Source of the DNA: Edaphochlamys debaryana
Taxonomy: Eukaryota; Chlorophyta; Chlorophyceae; Chlamydomonadales
DNA: 64,000 nucleotides
Assembly: GCA_016858145.1 (NCBI GenBank)
Contig: JAEHOE010000028.1
Coordinates: 310,001-374,000, forward strand
Direction of reading: 5' to 3'
Shown: positions 3,001 to 35,283 of the stretch, in pieces
Layout of the letters: each line of letters starts with the position of its first letter
Numbering within the stretch: position 1 is the stretch's first letter
The notes under the pieces: model-generated
What the model was told of the DNA's origin: nothing
Databases searched by the model: none
Seen by the model: the letters and a program-made list of their open reading frames with translations, nothing else
Made by a program: the position numbers and the translations under genes

Positions 3001-5925
3001 AGTGGTCAATGCGCCAGGGTCCCACCTCGGAGCTGGGTTGCAGCAAGAGCTGGGGAGGGCATGGCAGGAGGATATAGCTGTAAGAGTTACAGGAAACCGG
3101 CCAAAGTAACGGGTGGCGTATTCCAGGCGTGACAGGTCCCACCCAGTTTCTGGCTGACTCACCCCCCAGCTGTTGGTGGGGCCGCCGATGGAGGACAGCA
3201 GGAGCCATGAGTAGAGCTGTGCCATGACTTCAGCGGAAGGCGCGATGCCGCCCACAAGGCCGCTCGGCGACAGCAGAGGCGCCCGATTGGCAAGCACTGG
3301 ACCAGCCACCGCCTGCTGTGCTTGCGGTTGCGGCTGGGCCCCCTGCTGCAACCGCCGTAGCTGTGAGGCCGCCGGGGGTGCGGCCCCAGTCGTGCCCGGC
3401 AGGGGGGACACGAGCGCCGCGTAGGGGCAGAGCTCCGGGGTGCAGCGCACGAGGCCCTCGCCTGCCGGCCCCGAGCCCAGCACCAGCTCGCTGCCCGGCA
3501 GCAGTGACGCCGCCACGCGCCCTCGGACCGCGGAGGGCCCCGCGGGGTGCGCTGCGTGGCTGTTGCGCCTGAACTGCGCCGCCGAGCCCAGGGCCATGGC
3601 GCAGCGGCCCAGGGCGAAGTCGTCGCTGAAGGGCGGAGCGGTGGCGGAAAAGCTAACGGGCGCCGCAAAGGCCGCCAGGCGGCGAATGTACGACAGCACG
3701 TACGACATGGCGGTCGTGGCGGCGGCGGGCCGCAGCGTGTCGATGTCCAGGTACATGCCCTGAGCACGCAGATGCGGGAAGGGTGAAGGTCACAGCGAGC
3801 CAGATACCGGCTTCCCTGGACTAAGTCTGACCTTTAAAGGCACCCCCTCCTTTCCAACGTACCGATCGGCTGCCTTGCGTCTGCACCACGGGTGCCAGCA
3901 CGGCCAGCGCCAGCTCCTCCAGCGAGTGCGACGACTGCTGCATGCAGAACCCGTACAACGGGCCTGTCGTACGGTTGTATGAAACGCCGCCGCTGGCGTT
4001 GACTGAGCGGACGAGCATCGACGTCTCCGTGCCGTTGGCACGCGCAGCGACCTGCAAGTTCAAGCAAAAGAACTCACCCCGCTCAGCCCCAGAGCCCGCG
4101 ACCCACATTGCCACCTCTCCCCACAACCTCACGTCCCACAGCCCTTTGCAGACGGTCTGGACACGACACGGCCGACCCCGGGCAGCAGCCCGCCGGGCCC
4201 ACCTCCAGCAGCTGCTCCCAAGACTCTGGCGGTCGGCCCCCGAGCCCCAGCGCCGCCAGCACGTCCGTCCGAGCGAAGAGCACCAGCTGGGAGCCGTCCA
4301 GGGGCACCGCCACCATGTCGTCTGCGGTGGTGACCAGGTCCAGGATGGCCGGGTGCACGTCCCGCCGCAGGAAGTGCGTGTCCAGCGAGGACAGCCCGGC
4401 CAGGCCCGCCAGAGCGCCCGCGGAGCGGAGGTCCTGTGCGGGCGGGGGTGTGGGCACAAGAGGACACAAGGTGAGGCCGAGGATGGGGTGGCATGCCGTG
4501 CAGGGCGGGCACCGCACGGGGACACGGGCCTGATGGCCGAGACATGGGGACCGTGCTCGGGGCGACGTTGCACCGTTCCGGCAGCCCGGTTGGCCGCACG
4601 CGCACCTGGACTGCCGAGTAAGGCATCTGATACACGTCGTACATCACACCACCGCCCGCCGCCCCGGCCCGCCACCGCCCCGCGAACGCGAGCAGCTCAT
4701 CCTCCAGAGCGTCCAGGCTGACCGGCCGGGTGAAGTTGTTGCTGATGCGCTGCGGGAAGCCCGCAAAGGCAACGTCCAAGACTCCGGCCCCGTTGACAAT
4801 GACCGAGCCCACCGTGGTGGGTGGCAGGAGGAACTGGTTTGGCTGTAGGGAGGGAAGCGAGGAGGGAGGGGCCGGTAACGGGCTCTACTCGTGTATCAGC
4901 AGACGCAGACAGCACGATTGACTCGTTCGGTCGCTCAGTTCTGCGCAGTCTGAGCGCGGGGTTGTGAGAGCTGTCCCTTTCCCTTCGTCTACGTGGAGCC
5001 CATTTGGGTCGCATGTCTTGCGTGGGACCCCCATGCGCAGCAAGGGCAGGAGCTGTATCGGGCTAGGGCGCCACTCCCTTCAGCCAAGCTGCCCCGAAGC
5101 CTCCGTACTCTCCCGCAGGCAGGCTGACCCTAAGCCCCGCAGCTCGGCCTAATCGCAGTATGTGGCTCTGCCGGCCGCGCGTGCGGCACACACCGCACAG
5201 CCGCCCAGGCGGCCGATGTAGCCGATGCGTTGCGCCAGCTACCGGTACGCCTACGCCTAGGCACTGCTAGTCCTGCAGGCTCCAAGCATGAGCGTGGCCC
5301 GGCCCCACCCGTGTGAGCGCGAAAGGGCTGCAGAACTGGAAGAGGGCTCCCAGTAGCGTCCGGGTTGGCAGGGAGTACAGGGCGCCGCTCAGGGCACTGC
5401 CGTTGGGCGGGGGCCCGCGGGTGGCTGGGTCCAGACATCTGTGGGACAGCATAAGGACAGGAGGGCCTGCGTGTTACGAGCCGCTGGGCCAGGGGGTTGC
5501 CGCTTTGCATAGGCCGCGTGCAGCTGCATGCTGTGGAGGGCGGTCCGGGGCCAGGTTCGGCACGGGGGGAGTGACCGGGGGTTGGGCAACACCCCGACAT
5601 GAAGCCGCCGTCTGGACACGCCTGAGGGCAACCAACCTCGGCCACCTGGCTCCTTGTCGATTGCAACTCTGTAATGCCTAAGGCACAGGGCGACGCCGGC
5701 ACGGCCCTCGCCCTCCCGCTAGGCGCGCCAGGTGCATGCCCGCGAGGTGCAGGACACCCCTTGCAGCTGAACTCACGAGTAGTGAATGGGCGATAGAAAC
5801 ACGCTTTTGCAGGTCTCCTCAAACGCGATGTCACTACTGTGGTCGGCGTAAACTGTTGCCGCCAGCGCAAGCAGCAGCAGCGCCACTGCAAGCGCGCCGC
5901 AGGGCCCTCGCTCCTCCCACGCCAT
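1..5925 (-). CDS. Receptor-type class III nucleotide cyclase with solute-binding-like ectodomain (3' end outside window)
   Basis: Predicted membrane adenylate or guanylate cyclase. The start at 5925 gives a clear signal peptide (MAWEERGPCGALAVALLLLA, cleaved near VYA) and the first exon ends at a GTGAGT donor (5776). Exons near 4845-4610, 4437-4200, 4053-3862, 3762-3170, 3056-2870 and 2797-2515 encode a domain resembling bacterial family 1 extracellular solute-binding proteins. A transmembrane helix (GVIVGSVVGGTVVLLLAALL) lies near 2300-2220. The cytoplasmic cyclase domain starts with VTDIEGSTTLWE (about 1930-1880), which holds the first metal-binding Asp, and continues with LRTHHATVR and SATEGDSFVLAF (second Asp) near 1545-1500. 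The frame then stays open to position 1 as a long Ala/Gly/Pro-rich insertion, so the rest of the cyclase domain lies to the left. Nucleotide specificity (ATP or GTP) cannot be decided here. Domain assignments are firm; some exon edges are approximate. Confidence 0.85.
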
Positions 5926-26718: not shown

Positions 26719-27050
26719 GACGGAGGGTCAGCACAGGGTCGGTGCCGCTCAGGGCACGGCTTACGCCTGGGTCCATAGCGGCAAGCAGGGCCCACAAGCC
26801 GCCGCTGACCCCGTGGCCTCGGCCACCACCGCCTCCGCGGCCGTGGTCCCCCCGCGGGCCGCGGCCGGCCCGTGGCGGAGGCACGGCCGCCGCCGCCAGC
26901 GCCGCCGGCATAATGGGACCAGGCGTCGGCGGCACAGCGGAGCAGAGCCTTGTGCAGACGGGACAGCGCCGCCAGGGCCCGCTGGGGCGCCGCTGCCAGC
27001 AGCGCCGCCGCGGGCAGGTGTGCCGCCGCCGCCGAGACTGCGCCTGCGGC
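26719..27050 (-). pseudogene. Inverted partial copy of the adjacent MYND gene, left piece
   Basis: On the minus strand this matches the plus-strand MYND gene around 38487-38795 (shared peptide MDPGVSRALSGT). It then jumps to sequence matching about 39003-39020 (PVLTLR), so some 200 bp of the parent are missing. Many substitutions and small gaps break the frame. The copy is cut at 27050 by the retrotransposon and resumes at 35012. It arose by inverted duplication before the insertion. Confidence 0.85.
27046..27050. repeat. Target site duplication, left copy (GCGGC)
   Basis: GCGGC directly precedes the 5' LTR and recurs directly after the 3' LTR at 35012-35016. The unoccupied parent gene has a single copy (as GCCGC, 38483-38487), which proves this is the target duplication. 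Confidence 0.93.
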
Positions 27051-27449
27051 TGTTGTGCGCCGACCGTAGAAACGGACGTATTCTGCGAACGTCTACGGTC
27101 ATGCGGCCAAGTGCGGCCGAACTCTGGTCTGACCGTTTCTGCGACACCTGTGCGGGGGTCCGCAACCCCTCCGTCGCTCTGCACTGCTTGGGACCTGCCC
27201 CGCGGTTAAGCACCTTGCTGTATTGTGCTTACATCACAGCTCTGGCGCTGTGGTGCTGTCTCACCAATTGGTGTCGGAGTCTGATGGCCGTTACCGGCGG
27301 CGCCCATGCGGCCGCTGCGCACTACTTAACACCGGCCTCCGCGCCCAATTGGTATTCATGAATACCGCGCTCATACTTGGACGCGTCTCTCGACTCTCAC
27401 TTAGCTCTGCCTATCGTTCTAACAGCTCAAGCACTAGGCTGGTACAACA
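27051..27449 (+). repeat. 5' LTR (399 bp)
   Basis: Begins TGTTGT and ends ACAACA, a perfect 6-bp terminal inverted pair with the canonical TG...CA. It matches 34586-35011 apart from about five substitutions and the 27-bp indel. It holds an inverted repeat with 9-bp arms, GACCGTAGA (27062-27070) and TCTACGGTC (27092-27100). Confidence 0.96.
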
Positions 27450-27451
27450 AG

Positions 27452-27468
27452 TGGTAGCGGGACCTGCC
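27452..27468 (+). other. Primer-binding site
   Basis: TGGTAGCGGGACCTGCC starts two bases after the 5' LTR. The leading TGG pairs with a tRNA 3' CCA, and TGGTAGC resembles sites for initiator tRNA-Met. The exact tRNA was not identified. Confidence 0.7.
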
Positions 27469-27491
27469 CTCACGTTCGCCGCCACCGTAAC

Positions 27492-29675
27492 ATGGCCGCT
27501 AACAACGAGAAGACCAACTCGATGGAGGGTAGTCAGCAGGGCGACCACGACTACAGTCTTCTGTCCGGCTCCGTCGACATGGACAGCAAGGGTACTCACT
27601 GAGCTCGCTCCTGCCTGTGCCGCTTAGCTGCTTAGCTGTTTGGCGTCAGACGCTGCACGTTGCTTGCTCGCTCTCTGCTGCGTTGCTTGCTGTCGCTGCG
27701 TCTCGACTTTAGTCGTTCTGCGTTTGGCCAGTTCCGGCGTCTTCGGTTTCGGTCTGACCGGTTTCGCCGTTACTGCCCTTCCTGTAGAGAACCGCGACCC
27801 CAAGGGCAAGGCCCCGGACGTCGTCGGTAACAACATTGCTGAGACCACTGCCTGGCTCAAGAAGACGGCCGAGGACGCGGCTCGCCTGCGCGACCCCGCC
27901 GTCATTCGGGCTACCCTGGATACCATTCAGTCCGTGCGTCGCCAGTACGGTGACGGCAACGCGACCATTACGGAGTGCTGCAGTGCGGTAGAGTCTGTGC
28001 TGACGGGCATCCTGTTCCAGCTCAACCGTGAGTCGCGATGGACGTCTGGGCTGAATGGCCGGGTTGGCAACCGCCTGGGGTCGCCGCGCCTGTGCCCAAC
28101 GGGCAGGGTCCTGCTGTAGATAACGGGCTGCCAGCTGGACAGGCCGGACTTGCTGCTGGCGCGGGGGATGTAGCGGGCAACGTCGCGATAGGCAATGGCG
28201 GTAACCAGCCGCGTGCGCCTGCTCTGCCTGCTCAGCAGCCCGCACTGCTACCTCAAAATGCGCTTCCGCACCCTGCTGCGCCTCCTGCTATGCCCGGCGC
28301 TCTGGTCGCGCCTGGGCCCTGGGCCGGTTTCATGCCGCACATGCCCGCTGGGGCTATGGCGCCCGGTTACATGCCTGTGCCGTGGCCCTGGGGCCCTCCG
28401 TTCGGCATGCCGTATGGCCAGCCCGCTCCTGTTGCGGTGCCTGCGCCTGCCCAGGCCCCTGTCGCGCCTGCTGCGCCTGCGGCTCCTGCTGCCGCTGCTG
28501 TTTCTGCTAATGCTGCCTTCCGTGGCCCAATCCCTGAACGCGCCCCAGAGAACCAGCACGACCCCGAGGGTGGCGCTGCCTCTGGTGCGGCCTGCAAGGT
28601 CTCCACGCCGGTGGGTCGGGTCATTCGGGCTTCGCTGCCAGCGCCTGAGCTGGACCTGCACGGCCTGAAGGGGCCCCGCGTCCCCGCCCGCGTGCGTGCC
28701 TTTATTAGGGACGTAACTGAGTATTTCAGCTGCGTAACCGTGGGCGAAACGGACCCTGGGCGGCGCCTGTTCCTGTCCTCTGCACTTAAGGGGATCGCCA
28801 AGACCTGGCTTGACGATTGGACCGCAGCCCGTGGCAACGAGTCATATACCTCTGATGATATGCTCGATGCCGTTCGTGCGCGGTTTGCCCCCCAACTGAT
28901 GACGCGGCAAGAAGAGGCCCGCACTGAGCTGGCACGGCAGTCCTATGCCTGGATTGCTAACCGTGACACTGTAGCCGCTTACCAATCCCGGTTTAACGCC
29001 CTGTGCACTGCCATTCCCAACATGACCGATGAGGAGAAGTGCTTCTGGTTCAAAGCCGGCCTCTCTGCTGAAACTGAGCTTGCCGCTTCCTGCGCCTCCT
29101 CCCGGGAGGGCAACCCGTTCACGTCATATGCCGAGCTCTGCTCTCACGCCCTCTCTGAAGAGCGCAAAATGAAAGCTCGAGCTGACGCAATCCGTGACTC
29201 CCGTGCCCGTCTTGCTTCCGTTCGTGCCTGCCGCCCCTCCCGTCCGCAGCTGCCCAAGAAGCCCGACTCCGACGACGGCGACGGCGACACCCCCTCCAAG
29301 AAGGCCCGGGGTGCCGACGGCTCCGCCATCAAGGCCGCTGCGGCGTTCAAGGGCAAGGGCTCGCCGGGCAACAAGGGCAACAAGCACAAGAGCCCCGGCG
29401 GCCACAAGTCCCACGGCAACGGCAAGAACGGCAACGGCAAGCCCCAGTCCGGTGGTTACGAGGGCGCTGGCCCCTCGCACCCCCCGGTGGGGCCCCAGCG
29501 CGTGGCCTTCCTGATCCGGAACGCCCGCGCCCGGGGCGAGGACATGGCCGAGCAGATGCGCGCGTTCAACTGCAACCGCCGCACCTACTACGAGCGCAAG
29601 GGCTCGGGCCAGTGCCTCAACTGCAGTGCCTCCGACCACCGGGTCGCTGAGTGCCCCAGCAAGCCCGACAACTGA
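27492..29675 (+). CDS. gag: Retrotransposon Gag, three exons, ending in TGA
   Basis: Structural polyprotein that forms the particle and binds the RNA. Exons 27492-27591, 27788-28027 and 28120-29675 join to 632 codons including the stop. The start is the first ATG after the primer-binding site. The second exon is reached by AAG G|AG AAC and the third by AAC C|AT AAC, both in frame. A Pro/Ala-rich stretch (about 28130-28560) precedes a capsid region with WLDDW and FWFKAGLS, typical of retrotransposon gag. The end has a basic Lys/Gly/Asn segment and a CCHC zinc knuckle (CLNCSASDHRVAEC). The TGA at 29673-29675 is in the same frame as pol. An alternative start at 28038 in the same frame would avoid the introns but lose the N-terminus. 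Confidence 0.85.
27592..27787 (+). other. Gag intron 1 (196 bp)
   Basis: Donor GTACTC, acceptor CTTCCTGTAG. Read through, the frame stops a few codons later (TGA near 27599); removed, it continues in frame into the long second exon. Confidence 0.75.
28028..28119 (+). other. Gag intron 2 (92 bp)
   Basis: Donor GTGAGT, acceptor CTGCTGTAG. Removal joins the upstream frame to the long downstream gag frame through a CAT codon. Unspliced, the upstream frame ends at the TAG at the acceptor. Confidence 0.75.
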
Positions 29676-32600
29676 GGGCCTGCCCAGGCGTGTGCTGTAG
29701 GGGTTAGCCCACCTGGGTGCAAGGATAGGCCGCCTGTGGCCAAATGCGGTGCCGTTCACCTAGCGCATTCCGCACTGACTTCTGACAATCATGACGCTTC
29801 TGACACTAAAGCATCTGGCATGGTGTGGCGTGCGTGTCGTGCGGTGACTGGTTCTGTGCTGAAGGAAGTGGAGCGCAAAAATAAGCGCAAGTTTTCGTAT
29901 GACTTGTCTGCTATGCGTGCTGGCTTCTCTGCTACGTGTAACGTAGAGTGGCCTCGTTCTGCTTCTTTGGCCTCTGCGCGTCTTGGTGGTCACACCGTCT
30001 GGTTTACCCCTATCTCACTTGGTCAGCTGAAGGAGGGTCTTCGTGTCTTCAACTCGTGGCGTGCTGCTCGTCCTTTGACTTGCCTCGCCGTCCTGGTGCC
30101 CTCCTACATCGCCGCTCAAGCCAAGTCCGCTTCACTCTTCAACGGTATGGAGCGGGTTATGCGCTTTAAGGCGGGGTCTCAGCTGTTCAATGGGATTACC
30201 CTAGAGGGTCGTGTTGCGCGCCTGCCTGCCATCACGTCCTCTGCTGAGGTCTGGTACGCAGCCCCTGCTGATGGTGTTGCTGCGCCCTGTACTGCTAAGC
30301 CCCATGTGTCCTGTTTGCGAGCCAATGCCGCTTCCACAGACTCTGGGCTTCCTGTCATCGAGGTCCGTGCTGGCCGTGTGCTGACCACCGCTTTGGTCGA
30401 CACTGGCGCTAGCCATGACTTCATTTCTTACGCTTTGGCGAAGCGTCTGGGCCTGCACATCGATCCTTCGTACCAGCAAAAGGTTACGTTGGCTGATGGT
30501 GGCACTCAAGCCATCATGGGCCGTGTATCGCTGCGCCTGGCCCTTGGGTCCCTGCACCTAACCGTTCGCCCCTTCGTGCTCTCAGGACTGCTGGACCCTG
30601 TCTCCTACGTCCTGGGTGCATCGACCATGCGTTCTCTCTTCGCTGAGGTATGCATGGGGGACGGCTGCTTGCGCCTGCGCAAGGGCACTGCTTGGTGCCG
30701 CGTCCCCTTCCTGCCTGACCTCTCTGCCGGGGGGGAGGAAGCCGATGCATCTGAGCCTGCTGCTGATGCACCTAGTCTGAACCTAGCCCTGGCTGCTATG
30801 CGTGCTGGTGCCGAGCCGCGACGCATAGGCAGAAAGGAGGCTACTAGGGCCATCCGCAAGGGTGCGCATGGCATTCTGTTATGCCCTCGTGTCCCTGTTA
30901 ACGCTGGTGCCTCTGTTGCCACCTCCCCAGAGCCTGCCGTTCAGGCTGTGCTTGATGAATACCAAGAGGTGTTTGCTGAGATTATTGACACCCCTCCCTG
31001 GCGCCCTGTGTCGCATACAATTGAGCTGGAACCTGGTACTCGACCAATTGCCCGCCGTCAATACCGGCTCAGTCCTCTGGAGCAAGAAGAAGTCAAGCGT
31101 CAAGTCACCGACCTTCTGGCTAAGGGCATGATTCGTCCGTCGACGTCACCCTGGAGCGCCCCCATCCTCTTTGTTGGCAAGAAGGACGGTGCTCTCAGGT
31201 GTGAATGATCCTTTAGCGGTGCAGCTTGCTACGTGTTGCCCCTGCTAACGGCCTCACGTGCTTCTCTCTTATCCAGAATGTGTATTGACTATCGAGGTGT
31301 GCGGTGGGGTTATCTGTTGCCTGCCCGCCTCCTCGTTTTGCCCTCTTTTAGTTTACCTCTGTCAGTCAGCGCCCCTCTAGCTCGGCCCGCGTTTAGGTTT
31401 AGATAGGTTTAGGTCAAACACATGCGTACTAGCTTAGAGCGCTGACCCCCTTCCCGGTTTCCTCTGACGTGTGTAGGCCTCAACGCCAAAACCGTCAAGA
31501 ACCGGTACCCACTGCCGCGCGTCGATGATCTGCTCGACAAGCTGCGTGGCGCTAAATACTTTAGCTCTCTGGACCTCCAGCAGGTGGGAGTTGGGCTGGT
31601 TTGCAGCTGTGCACGGCTGGTGCCTGCAACCGGTTCCTTTCCCCCCTGCAGGGGTATAACCAGATCCGGATCCACGAATCCGATATCCCTAAAACAGCTT
31701 TCAGCACTCCGTTTGGGCATTTCGAGTACACCGTGCTACCCTTTGGGCTAGTCAACGCCCCTAGCACGTTCCAGTCAGCGCTCGGAGAGATATTTTCTCC
31801 CTGCATTTCTGCGGGCTTTATGACCCTCTACCTGGAGTGAGTGCGTGTGTGCTGTAGAACGCAAGCCGGCTTGATCCCCGTCCCTTGCTGCGCCTGATCA
31901 GCGCCTCACACACAACGCCCTCCCCTCTTTTAATTTCCCTTCGGCCTCCTGCCCTCAGTGACGGTCTGGTCTACAGCAAGACGCTTGAAGAACACCTGGT
32001 TCATTTACGTCAAGTGCTGCAGATCATGCGTGACCAAAAGCTTTACGCGAAAGCGTCAAAGTGTCATTGGGCCGAGCCGCAAGTGGAGTATCTGGGCCAC
32101 ATCGTCTCTGCGGATGGTGTACGTATGGACCCCAAGAAGGTTTCTGCCGTACGTGACTGGCCCACGCCAACCAACCTGCAAGAGCTGCGTTCATTTTTGG
32201 GCCTGACCAATTATTTTCGCAAATTTGTAGAGCGCTACAGCAACCTGGCTGCACCGCTAACCAACCTCACGCGTGCAGGCGCTTTCACCTCTCCGGCTTC
32301 CTGGACCCCTGAGTGTCAAGCCGCCTTTGAGGCTATCAAGCGCGCCATTGCAGAGGATGTGGTGTTGGCGTTTCCAGACCCACAGCTGCCCTACCGCATC
32401 GAAATTGTGACGGACGCGTCCAATCACGGTATGGGTGCTGTGATATTACAAGGTGGGCGTCCGATTGCCTTCACCAGCAAAAAGTTCAGCCCCGCCGAAC
32501 GCAACTACACAACCGGTGAACAGGAGCTCTTAGCCGTGTTGATTGCGCTTCGCGAGTGGCGCTGCTATGTGGAAGGAGCTGAATTTGTTGTGAAAACTGA

Positions 32601-34539
32601 TCATGCTCCCAACACCTATCTGCAGGGTGTGCCGACCCTCAACCGCCGCCAAGCCCGCTGGATGGAATATTTGGCACGGTTTAACTTCCATTGGGAGTAC
32701 CTGAAAGGGTCACTCAACGTGGCTGATGCGCTGAGTCGGCACCCGTTGCTCAAGGTAGCCCGGCTGGCTTGCATCACGCTGATGGGTGTGGCCTTTGCTC
32801 AGGTGCTTACTCGACGGCAGGCAGCGCGCCGCCCTGGTGGCGTGTCACCACAGCAGGTGGGTTCTGCGCCTGCGGGGAGTGCCTCTCCCTCAGCGCAGGA
32901 CGCTGCTATGCTGCCTGACCCTGCGTCCCCTGTCCCTGACGTTGGCCTGAGTTTGAACCCACGGGCTCCTGGCGACAGCCCTGATGCTGCTACGCCTATG
33001 GACCTGGACGGTCTGCCTGAAGCAACACCGGGCATGCCGCCTGAGGCCTCTGCTCCGAGTGATCTGGTTGCTCGCATACGCGAAACCTATGCTTTGGACC
33101 CCTGGTTCAAAATCTCTGCCAACACCAGTAAGCTCCAGTCTGCAAACGGCTTATGGTTCACTGCTGACGAACCTGGGCAACGACCCCTGATTGTCGTGCC
33201 TGCTTATGCTGAATTACGCCGGCAGATTATCTCTCGTTACCATGCTGGGCCCGTGGGTGGTCACCCTGGTGGCAAACGCACCCTGGCTCTGGTCCGCTCA
33301 CATTTCTGGTGGAGCTCCATGGCGAGTGATGTTGAGAGCTACGTCGCTTCCTGCGACTCCTGTCAATTCAACAAGTCCCTGTCTGGTAAGGGCCACGGGC
33401 TGCTGCAACCCTTGCCCATACCTAGCATGCCTTGGGAGTCCGTTTCCATGGACTTCGTGTGCGCACTGCCCAAGACTGAAAGGGGGTGGGACACGGTACT
33501 TGTCTTCGTTGACAGGCTGACTAAAATGGTGCATCTGGCCCCAACCACGTCTAAATGTACAGCACCTGAAGCTGCGCAGTTATTCTGGGACAACGTCGTA
33601 CGCCTGCACGGTATGCCCGCTAACGTAGTTGGTGACCGTGACTCACTGTGGCGTAGCCATTTCTGGCGAGAGCTCTGTCGCTTGAGTGATCTGCGGGTTC
33701 AGCTGTCGACCTCTTATCATCCCCAGTCGGATGGGCAGACTGAGCGCGTAAATCGTGTTCTTGGAGAAACCCTAAGAAACTTCGCCTCCCGTGCGCAGAC
33801 CTCTTGGGATTCTTTCCTCACCGCTGCAGAGTTCGCCATCAACAACGCTGTTAACCGTTCTACTGGTCGTTCTCCGTTCTACCTCAATTATGGCTTTAAT
33901 CCTGCGCTACCTGTGTGGCGCGAGATCGAGTCTGTCGTCCCGGCATCTAAACAGTTCATCGCCGACTTTGCTACACGCATTAAGGACGCCAGGACTTGCA
34001 TCGAGGCTGCTCAACAACGTGCCGCCGCCTACTACAACAAGTCTAAGAGGCCTGTGACCTTTGCGCCTGGGCAAATGGTTTTGCTGAGCACGACTAACCT
34101 CCATTCTTTGGCCACAGGACCGCGCAAACTGTTGCCGCGCTTCATTGGTCCTTTCCGTGTTAAAGAGATGGTGGGTGAAGCTGCTGTGCGGTTGGAGCTG
34201 CCTTCCCACATGCGCATTCATCCCACGTTTCACGTCTCCCTGGTTAAGCCCTACTGTGCTGCCCCTGACGGCACTGCTACCGAGCCTGGCCCCATCGCAT
34301 GGCTTGAAGATGGAGAGCCTATGTTCACTGTGGAACGTGTCCTGGACTACCGTGAACGGCTGGTGCATGGTAAAAGTAAACGCAAGCGTACCGTACGTGA
34401 GTACCTTGTGCAGTGGGCTGGTTACTCCTCTGAGAACAACACCTGGGAGCCTGCCTCTAACTTTACCCCTGACCTCAAGCCTGCGCTTGATGAGGCTAGG
34501 GCCCGCTGGAAAGCCCGACAGGTTTCCCGTGCTGGTTAA
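29676..34539 (+). CDS. pol: Retrotransposon Pol (PR-RT-RNase H-IN-chromodomain), five exons, in frame with Gag across one TGA
   Basis: Exons 29676-31198, 31277-31296, 31477-31583, 31652-31836 and 31959-34539 sum to 4,416 nt, exactly 1,472 codons with the stop. Domains in order: an unrecognised N-terminal region (to about 30370); aspartic protease [14 protein letters not shown] with [29 protein letters not shown] and the YLDD box, whose first Asp codon is split by intron 4; RNase H with [28 protein letters not shown] and NVADALSRH; integrase HHCC zinc finger (HAGPVGGH to CDSC) and the DDE residues in SMDFV, VVGDRDS and QTERVNR; C-terminal chromodomain [10 protein letters not shown]...[17 protein letters not shown]. 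Without readthrough, the first in-frame ATG is 29820. Catalytic residues appear intact. Confidence 0.93.
31199..31276 (+). other. RT intron 1 (78 bp)
   Basis: Donor GTGTGA, acceptor TTATCCAG, with a branch-like CTAAC about 30 bp before the acceptor. Splicing makes an AGA codon joining GAL to MCIDYR. Unspliced reading stops at the TGA at 31206-31208. Confidence 0.85.
31297..31476 (+). other. RT intron 2 (180 bp)
   Basis: Donor GTGTGC, acceptor GTGTGTAG. Joins CGA G to GC CTC, giving the conserved [13 protein letters not shown]. Three telomere-like TTTAGG units lie inside (31392-31413). Confidence 0.87.
31584..31651 (+). other. RT intron 3 (68 bp)
   Basis: Donor GTGGGA, acceptor CCCCCTGCAG after a pyrimidine tract. 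Joins LDLQQ to GYNQIRI in phase 0, restoring the RT block around the first catalytic Asp. Confidence 0.87.
31837..31958 (+). other. RT intron 4 (122 bp), splits the YLDD codon
   Basis: Donor GTGAGT, acceptor CTGCCCTCAG. Joins TAC CTG GA to T GAC, rebuilding Tyr-Leu-Asp-Asp. Unspliced, the exon reads Glu then TGA, so no active RT can be made without splicing. Confidence 0.9.
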
Positions 34540-34571
34540 CTGCCAGTGAGGCTACGAGGACGCAGCCTCCT

Positions 34572-34581
34572 AGAGGGGGAA
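34572..34581 (+). other. Polypurine tract
   Basis: AGAGGGGGAA lies four bases before the 3' LTR, the expected place for the plus-strand primer. Confidence 0.8.
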
Positions 34582-34585
34582 CACT

Positions 34586-35011
34586 TGTTGTGCGCCGACC
34601 GTAGAAACGGACGTATTCTGCAAACGTCTACGGTCGTGCGGCCAAGTGCGGCCGAACTCTGGTCTGACCGTTTCTGCGACACCTGTGCGGGGGTCCGCAA
34701 CCCCTCCGTCGCTCTGCACTGCTTGGGACCTGCCCCGCGGTTAAGCACCTTGCTGTATTGTGCTTACATCACAGCTCTGGCGCTGTGGTGCTGTCTCACC
34801 AATTGGTGTCGGAGTCTGACGGCCGTTACCAGCGGCGCTACAGCTGGCACGCGCCAGCTGCGCGCCCATGCGGCCGCTGCGCACTACTTAACACCGGCCT
34901 CCGCACCCAATTGGTATTCATGAATACCGCGCTCATACTTGGACGCGTCTCTCGACTCTCACTTAGCTCTGCCTATCGTTCTAACAGCTCAAGCACTAGG
35001 CTGGTACAACA
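34586..35011 (+). repeat. 3' LTR (426 bp)
   Basis: Same TGTTGT...ACAACA ends as the 5' LTR. It is longer by 27 bp because of a segment around 34839-34865 that contains an 8-bp-arm hairpin (CAGCTGGC/GCCAGCTG, 34841-34860). Confidence 0.96.
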
Positions 35012-35016
35012 GCGGC
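35012..35016. repeat. Target site duplication, right copy (GCGGC)
   Basis: Right-hand copy of the 5-bp target duplication of the retrotransposon. Confidence 0.93.
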
Positions 35017-35283
35017 TAACTTGGCTCGCTTAGCCACACACTCCGCTTCCGTGCGATCCCACGCCGTTTGGCCGCGACCCCCACGCCGGCTGCCGCCTCA
35101 GCACCTCCGCTGCTCCATTCAACAGCTGTGCCAGCAGCTGAACCGCGGGGACGCAGCACAGGGAGAGAGCCTCCGCCAGCGTCCGCCGCGCTGCCGCCAG
35201 GACCGGCTCTGCCTCGCGCAGACGCCTTCACCAGCGTCCACCGCAGCGGCGGTGGGTAAGGAGCTTGGCACAGTCCTGGACGC
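35012..35283 (-). pseudogene. Inverted partial copy of the adjacent MYND gene, right piece
   Basis: Continues the broken copy after the insertion. It is the reverse complement of about 38240-38487 of the intact gene, with substitutions and small indels, and includes the sequence for the LAKRAKLA and FGWSS-like parental segments in diverged form. With the left piece it covers roughly 550 bp of the parent's second exon. Not functional. Confidence 0.85.

What the first reader, a model, noticed from the sequence alone, without database searches (positions are those of the whole stretch)
27051..35011. LTR retrotransposon carrying six spliceosomal-type introns that restore one gag-pol frame
Seen: six gaps (27592-27787, 28028-28119, 31199-31276, 31297-31476, 31584-31651, 31837-31958) have GT...AG ends. 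Their removal rebuilds conserved Gag and RT blocks and gives exon sums divisible by three in both gag (1,896 nt) and pol (4,416 nt). Known: copying through spliced RNA should erase introns, so LTR elements usually lack them. The near-identical LTRs and clean target duplication show that this copy moved recently with its introns. Inference: the packaged genome is unspliced RNA and the proteins come from spliced RNA, a retrovirus-like division of labour. I am not aware of a description of this in green algae, but could not search.
Basis: partly seen in the sequence, partly recalled or inferred. Interest (0 to 1): 0.88.

Follow-up and report, generated by a model that had tools for sequence, protein, structure and literature searches.

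The report
Retrotransposon with introns in its polymerase
A green-alga jumping element that copies itself through RNA keeps introns inside its copying-enzyme gene, which suggests that spliced RNA makes the enzyme while unspliced RNA is the copy that moves.

Summary
Window 27051-35011 is a full-length Ty3/gypsy chromodomain element with a 5-bp TSD. Pol introns i3-i6 are exact: in 15 of 15 homologues with all exon pieces, exons meet with exactly the predicted number of residues. They are present wherever covered in 16 other loci; seven distinct insertions among these have TSDs. Sister families B and C (dS above 1) share some introns and precisely lack others. Of 66 tabulated reverse-transcriptase loci, 27 (families A-C) have introns, 39 none. 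Carriers form one clade (100/98) among relatives without introns, so introns were probably gained and then kept through many retrotransposition rounds.

Corrections: gag intron 1 is supported; "intron 2" is doubtful and may be an ORF overlap. An in-frame stop (TGA in A, TAG in B and C) separates gag from pol.

Best model: unspliced RNA is the genome and makes Gag; spliced RNA, read through the stop, makes RT, RNase H and integrase. No RNA data were available, so splicing, readthrough and packaging are inferred. Ogre, Cer1 and BARE are precedents: a new variant, not a new kind.

The parts
27046..27050 (.). 5' target site duplication GCGGC
   Evidence: matches 35012-35016
27051..27449 (+). 5' LTR (TG...CA)
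27452..27464 (+). putative primer binding site TGGTAGCGGGACC
   Evidence: read by eye; tRNA not identified
27492..27591 (+). exon 1 (start ATG, 33 codons + 1 nt)
   Evidence: B has a corresponding short exon
27592..27787 (+). intron 1, 196 nt, phase 1
27788..28027 (+). exon 2, fast-evolving or replaced between subgroups
28028..28119 (+). doubtful intron 2, 92 nt; alternatively overlap of an upstream ORF with gag (ATG 28038)
28120..29672 (+). gag exon 3 with Retrotrans_gag match (28773-29066, E 5e-5, 23.8 bits against a cut-off of 24.1) and a zinc-knuckle-like CX2CX4HX4C stretch (motif name recalled)
29673..29675 (+). in-frame gag stop TGA, kept in 14 of 14 covered other A loci; TAG in three B loci and one C locus read
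29681..29719 (+). stem TGCCCAGG/CCTGGGTG 5 nt after the stop, counterpart stems in B and C
29676..31198 (+). pol exon 4 with aspartic protease (30381-30632) and start of RT
   Evidence: for the protease; RT start from homologue alignment
31199..31276 (+). intron 3, 78 nt, phase 2; absent precisely in family C
31277..31296 (+). 20-nt micro-exon, part of RMCIDYRG
31297..31476 (+). intron 4, 180 nt, phase 1; present in A, B, C
31477..31583 (+). exon 6, RT
31584..31651 (+). intron 5, 68 nt, phase 0; absent precisely in family B
31652..31836 (+). exon 7, RT (RVT_1)
31837..31958 (+). intron 6, 122 nt, phase 2; splits the YLDD catalytic motif (name recalled); in A, B, C
31959..34539 (+). exon 8: RT end (RVT_1, under cut-off on its own), RNase H, integrase (H2C2 33211-33378, rve 33427-33723 under cut-off), SH3_Tf2-1, chromodomain (34324-34464)
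34572..34581 (+). putative polypurine tract AGAGGGGGAA
   Evidence: read by eye
34586..35011 (+). 3' LTR
35012..35016 (.). 3' target site duplication GCGGC

Best explanation
A chromodomain Ty3/gypsy element of a green alga whose reverse transcriptase is made only from spliced RNA. Shown from DNA: four introns interrupt the RT core at exact places, five intron sites in all among families A-C fall within about 312 nt of pol coding sequence, and intron-bearing copies have inserted recently and repeatedly. Inferred: full-length unspliced RNA is exported and packaged as the genome. Translated, it yields Gag up to the in-frame stop and, on occasional readthrough, Gag-protease that ends at the stop inside intron 3. 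Spliced RNA, also read through the stop, yields Gag-Pol with RT, RNase H and integrase, supplied in trans. The introns thus act as a gate that keeps RT off the genomic RNA, and survive because the genome is the unspliced form. Rare copying of partly spliced RNA explains the precise absence of intron 5 in family B.
For: Exact junctions in 15 of 15 homologues with all pieces. Intron ends intact for i3 in 15 of 15, i4 16 of 16, i5 15 of 16 and i6 16 of 16 covered other A loci. Eight distinct TSD-flanked insertions including the window, seven with 0 or 1 LTR mismatches and the window 5 of 399. dN/dS 0.12-0.28 on exons 4, 6, 7, 8 at dS 1.1-1.8. Intron lengths in A/B/C keep no common frame (i3 78/83; i4 180/136/146; i5 68/76; i6 122/97/98). 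i4 is alignable above 30 shuffles for A-B and A-C. i6 of A, B and C share the 12-mer GCCTGATCAGCG, while the longest string shared by 1000 shuffled triples was 8. Precise presence/absence differences at splice junctions. One clade of carriers, 100/98, among relatives without introns; 27 carriers and 39 non-carriers among 66 tabulated loci. Five sites within 312 of 4,413 nt: about 1e-4 under uniform placement. In-frame stop kept as a stop though it changes TGA/TAG between families.
Against: No transcript of any kind was seen: splicing, export, packaging and readthrough are not shown. The gate role is inferred from position; the clustering estimate treats intron gain as uniform and was computed after seeing the clustering. 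Folding energy after the stop is not below shuffles in A (z 0.7 for 45 nt, 1.5 for 75 nt) and only weakly so in B (-1.6, -1.7) and C (-0.7, -0.3). Global alignments of i3 (A-B), i4 (B-C), i5 (A-C) and i6 (A-C, B-C) are not above shuffled maxima, so for i3 and i5 homology rests on position alone. Some A loci have a damaged intron end (L050 i5 CAT; L041 i2 TTG) and frame-breaking indels. Only three families, all from one genome, were compared at the DNA level. Family C gag 5' ends could not be read (two copies apparently 5'-truncated or rearranged, judged by eye).
Confidence: 0.72

Rival explanations
1. The introns are real and spliced in some RNA, but they have no regulatory role: host splicing of element RNA is merely incomplete, enough unspliced RNA is left to be packaged, and introns drift in and out.
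For: Intron content differs among families A, B and C; i3 and i5 sequences are not conserved between families beyond shuffles.
Against: All five pol intron sites of A-C lie in the RT core. Two of them (i4, i6) are kept in all three families at dS above 1. No precise loss in any covered family-A locus.
Confidence: 0.2
2. A defective family with non-functional insertions, moved in trans by intact intron-free elements.
For: Intron-free relatives exist in the same genome; several family-A loci carry indels or deletions.
Against: Insertions fall exactly between homologous residues with GT-AG ends; purifying selection on the four tested pol exons; shared stop and intron sites over three diverged families.
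Confidence: 0.03
3. The copies spread as DNA (segmental duplication), so the introns were never exposed to an RNA stage.
For: One locus pair shares the same flanks and TSD (L046 and L051), and the 3' flank of L041 looks like internal element sequence, as in a tandem arrangement.
Against: Eight distinct insertions each have their own 5-bp TSD.
Confidence: 0.02
4. For gag only: intron 2 is not an intron. Splicing of intron 1 makes a short upstream ORF that overlaps gag, and gag starts at ATG 28038 by termination-reinitiation.
For: TGATG overlap in family B; in-frame 6-nt indels and protein-like change between the window and L047 across 28038-28119.
Against: GTGAGT is kept in A1, A2 and B, and an acceptor TAG is present in 7 of 8 fully covered other A loci; exon sums fit splicing.
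Confidence: 0.55

Closest known systems
Ogre (Ty3/gypsy, OTA/Tat lineage, pea and Medicago)
   Different: One intron in a region between two ORFs; here four introns lie inside the RT domain, in a chromodomain element, with an in-frame gag stop and a further 5' intron.
Cer1 (C. elegans, Ty3/gypsy)
   Same: Element with functional splice sites whose unspliced RNA is exported and packaged (abstract and passages of PMC10309623).
   Different: Splicing there makes CERV, a nuclear protein needed for export, from a five-exon mRNA; Cer1 has no stop between gag and pol. No CERV-like protein was identified here (only Pfam was tried on the upstream ORF).
BARE1 and EVADE (Ty1/copia)
   Same: Separate RNA pools, one spliced, for translation and replication (BARE, abstract); alternative splicing in EVADE (passages of a review, PMC12786077).
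   Different: Splicing there favours Gag; here it would enable RT.
Chlamyvir clade of chromoviruses
   Same: Chromodomain Ty3/gypsy elements of green algae (passages of PMC3350952 and PMC6317226).
   Different: The word intron does not occur in the main text of PMC3350952; its two occurrences in PMC6317226 concern Ogre. No Chlamyvir reference was in my tree.
Tca2 (Candida albicans retrotransposon)
   Same: gag and pol separated by one UGA stop with a potential RNA pseudoknot after it (start of abstract in a search listing, PMC2194720).
   Different: Structure here is a simple stem with one compensatory change; readthrough untested. Introns are not mentioned in the part seen.

Membership tests
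Ty3/gypsy LTR retrotransposon | LTRs, TSD, domain order PR-RT-RH-INT | tested here: met
Chromovirus | chromodomain at the integrase C-terminus | tested here: met
   PF00385, E 5e-10, end of exon 8
Chlamyvir clade | position in the RT tree with Chlamyvir references | not tested
   no reference element of the clade was at hand; named green-algal relatives only
Ogre-type (OTA/Tat) | no chromodomain; extra RNase H (aRH) | tested here: not met
   chromodomain present; in the Pfam scan the two RNase H models match one overlapping stretch and no second RNase H was listed
Splicing-regulated LTR element (works like Ogre) | spliced and unspliced RNAs both exist and have different coding capacity | not testable with these tools
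   coding capacity differs by stops on intron retention; RNAs not seen
Stop-codon-readthrough gag-pol | conserved in-frame stop between gag and pol with a 3' stimulatory structure | tested here: inconclusive
   stop kept in A, B, C; stem in all three but folding z not significant
Spliceosomal introns (host type) | GT-AG ends, exact removal restores the homologous protein, precise presence/absence among relatives | tested here: met
   i3 and i5 meet all three; i4 and i6 are present in A, B and C and absent from relatives without introns; i1 not tested against homologues; i2 inconclusive

The most novel reading that the evidence does not exclude
A splicing-gated retrotransposon. Introns were gained, not merely tolerated, inside the RT catalytic core so that genomic RNA cannot make RT. 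The 5' intron, 90% identical between the window and L047 whose flanking exons are 73% and about 50% identical, carries a packaging or export signal that marks unspliced RNA, in the manner of a retroviral packaging signal placed downstream of the splice donor (comparison recalled). The fast-evolving upstream ORF may be a regulator.
Probability: 0.3. Interest if true: 0.86.

Novelty: new variant of a known kind. Interest (0 to 1): 0.7.

Why it matters
Retrotransposons are expected to lose introns when spliced RNA is copied, and intron loss is used as a laboratory reporter of retrotransposition (review passages). Here a clade appears to have gained several introns in its own enzyme gene and kept them over a divergence with dS above 1, with precise absences that suggest occasional use of spliced RNA as template. 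It gives a natural test of how a retroelement separates genome from messenger RNA, and of intron gain in an element that passes through RNA. Annotation that asks for one long pol ORF could call such elements degenerate and miss them (inference).

Tried and rejected
Degenerate copy with insertions: rejected. DNA-level duplication: rejected for eight TSD-flanked insertions. Introns as copies of a genomic intron repeat: in the DNA search with 30900-32400, matches reaching into i3-i4 came only from families A, B and C, B and C matching just the last 38-46 nt of i4, so no support; that search is not sensitive to short diverged repeats. Gag homologues outside the genome: none at E 0.001, with candidates limited to those sharing most words. 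Upstream ORF in Pfam: no match for the 33-aa and 109-aa pieces. Rfam on 26900-35100: no match. Bacterial-type promoter scan of 27000-27500: none, and not meaningful in an alga. tRNA scan of the window: none. Structure of intron 1: z -2.2 in the window but -0.5 in L047 and 0.9 in family B, so not supported. Literature for introns in green-algal LTR elements: (open-licence PMC full text only; I saw titles, counts and abstract starts of the best-ranked papers); no such report was apparent there. Most subscription papers are not held, and the curated repeat library in the supplement of PMC8226300 was not readable. The primary Ogre, EVADE and recoding papers were not held.
Full report
Where it is. 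The window lies in G000:C28:310001-374000 of a 141.9-Mb, 502-contig genome. Size and contig number resemble the Edaphochlamys debaryana assembly (142.14 Mb, 527 contigs in a table passage of PMC8226300); the identification is inference only.

The element. 27051-35011 has two LTRs (399 and 426 nt; 5 mismatches and one indel), a 5-bp TSD GCGGC, and a putative PBS and polypurine tract (read by eye). Pfam on five exon pieces gives Retrotrans_gag (weak, just under the cut-off), aspartic protease, RVT_1 in two exons (one over and one under the cut-off), RNase H, integrase zinc domain, rve (under the cut-off), SH3_Tf2-1 and a chromodomain; the 35-aa exon 6 piece matched nothing on its own. It is a Ty3/gypsy chromovirus.

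Pol introns are real features. Introns 3-6 (31199-31276, 31297-31476, 31584-31651, 31837-31958) have GT-AG ends. Of 120 homologous proteins listed I tried 18; in the 15 that hold all exon pieces, exons 4 and 6 are separated by exactly eight residues (RMCIDYRG in nine, close variants in six), exons 6 and 7 by none, and exons 7 and 8 by a single D, as the splice model predicts. Intron 6 splits the catalytic YLDD. Each of the six gaps, if retained and read in the upstream frame, brings a premature stop.

Copies. A DNA search found 16 other loci of this family (A) beside the window. Introns were covered and had intact ends as follows: i1 11 of 11 (5 loci not covered); i2 fully covered in 8, acceptor TAG in 7 and TTG in one; i3 15 of 15 (one more partly covered); i4 16 of 16; i5 16 covered, acceptor CAG in 15 and CAT in one; i6 16 of 16. 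No precise loss was seen. Of 13 loci (window included) with two LTR matches, nine have an exact 5-bp TSD, one of them (L047) read by eye after a one-base offset. Two of the nine (L046, L051) share flanks and look like one insertion, so eight distinct insertions remain. Seven of these have 0 or 1 LTR mismatches and the window has 5 of 399; L051 itself shows 15 of 423. L040, L041, L049 and L053 showed no exact TSD; L042, L045, L052 and L054 had only one LTR match. Intron-bearing RNA, or cDNA of it, has therefore been inserted many times and recently.

Sister families. Family B (five loci; junctions printed for four) has i3, i4 and i6 but precisely lacks i5; family C (six loci, two read in sequence, the others consistent by coordinates) has i4, i5 and i6, precisely lacks i3, and has an extra 71-nt intron in exon 7. 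Divergence from A is large (dS 1.1-1.8) with dN/dS 0.12-0.28 in exons 4, 6, 7 and 8; the micro-exon and gag were not tested. i4 is alignable above 30 shuffles for A-B and A-C but not B-C; i6 is barely above for A-B and not for the other pairs; i3 and i5 are not above. However, i6 of A, B and C share the 12-mer GCCTGATCAGCG, while in 1000 shuffled triples the longest shared string was 8, so i6 is very likely one inherited intron. B (one locus read) has an intron at the i1 place, same phase, 140 nt; first exons are 100 nt in A and 58 nt in B before the donor. A-B alignment of i1 gives 75 matches against a shuffled maximum of 70.

Gain, not relic. From the coordinates of three exon searches (capped lists) I tabulated by hand 66 reverse-transcriptase loci that matched all three pieces (56, ten more). 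27, all of families A, B and C, show intron-sized excess; 39 show none beyond 27 nt. The tree uses the first 270 residues of exon 8 from 26 own-genome loci (window included; L004, L005 and L007 left out) and 41 of 45 database proteins tried. Intron carriers form one group (100/98), with A and B together (95/89) and C outside. Their sister group is ten database proteins, and all other rows lie outside. Where those ten hold the RT (nine of ten) their frame runs through it. How they were predicted is not stated, and P0001 (Astrephomene) comes from an annotated eukaryotic genome, so some could be spliced models. Taken at face value, at least i4 and i6 were gained on the stem of A-C, and i5 was gained there and lost in B, or gained twice.

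Gag end. Gag and pol are in the same frame. The stop is kept in 14 of 14 covered other A loci (two not covered) and is TAG in three B loci and the one C locus read, each followed by GGG. A stem starts 5-6 nt after the stop in all three families, with one C-G to T-A compensatory pair, but free energies are not significantly below shuffles. The stem arms also code for protein. Readthrough is therefore likely but not shown.

Gag start. Intron 2 is the weak one. The stretch is open in the gag frame from ATG 28038. L047 (subgroup A2) differs from the window by in-frame 6-nt indels and by changes that keep the protein recognisable, and B has a TGATG stop/start overlap at the same GTGAGT. Either splicing fuses the upstream ORF to gag, or gag is started separately. 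Intron 1 is 90% identical between the window and L047 while exon 1 is 73% and exon 2 about 50%; recombination or a cis signal in the intron could explain that. Its folding energy is low in the window (z -2.2) but not in L047 (-0.5) or B (0.9), so structure is not supported.

Mechanism. The simplest account is that unspliced RNA is the genome and Gag messenger, with readthrough giving protease but ending at the stop inside i3 (31206), while spliced RNA gives the complete Gag-Pol. All five pol intron sites of A-C fall within 312 nt of 4,413 nt (about 1e-4 if placed at random; chosen after seeing it), which fits selection for gating RT but could also reflect biased gain. No RNA evidence was available.

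Known relatives in function. Ogre has an intron between GAG-PROT and RT spliced from a subset of transcripts (passage). Cer1 needs a protein from a spliced mRNA to export unspliced RNA (abstract and passages). BARE uses separate RNA pools (abstract). A 2025 review names Ogre and EVADE as notable plant exceptions to intron-free LTR elements (passage). In the open-licence library I saw no description of several introns in the RT of an LTR element of green algae (searches; listings, plus passages of PMC8226300). Verdict: a real feature of a recently active family, a new variant of a known kind.

Noticed in passing
window 27051-27449 against LTRs of other loci: Most full-length LTR matches are only 77-83% identical to the window's 5' LTR (92-93% at C20 and C210 and in the window's own 3' LTR) while the 30900-32400 stretch is 96-99% identical: the window copy looks like a mosaic of two subfamilies.
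   Followed up: partly
window 27788-28027 against L047 about 1000-1245: Exon 2 differs almost completely between the window and L047 although the flanking intron sequences stay 83-90% identical; exon replacement or very fast change.
   Followed up: partly
window 29673-29719: In-frame gag stop that changes TGA/TAG between families but stays a stop, with a stem after it in all three.
   Followed up: yes
L053 about 4825-5323: A stretch of about 158 bp (intron 5 to exon 7) is present three times in tandem in one copy.
   Followed up: no
L046 and L051: Same TSD and flanks on C138 and the small contig C404: probably one insertion assembled twice, the second with many small differences.
   Followed up: partly
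intron 6: window 31837-31958; L030; L034: GCCTGATCAGCG is shared by intron 6 of three families whose introns otherwise align poorly; 0 of 1000 shuffled triples share more than 8 nt. Common descent or a kept signal.
   Followed up: partly
L068: Upstream of the C149 copy of family C I saw no gag-like sequence by eye, so that copy seems cut at its 5' end.
   Followed up: no
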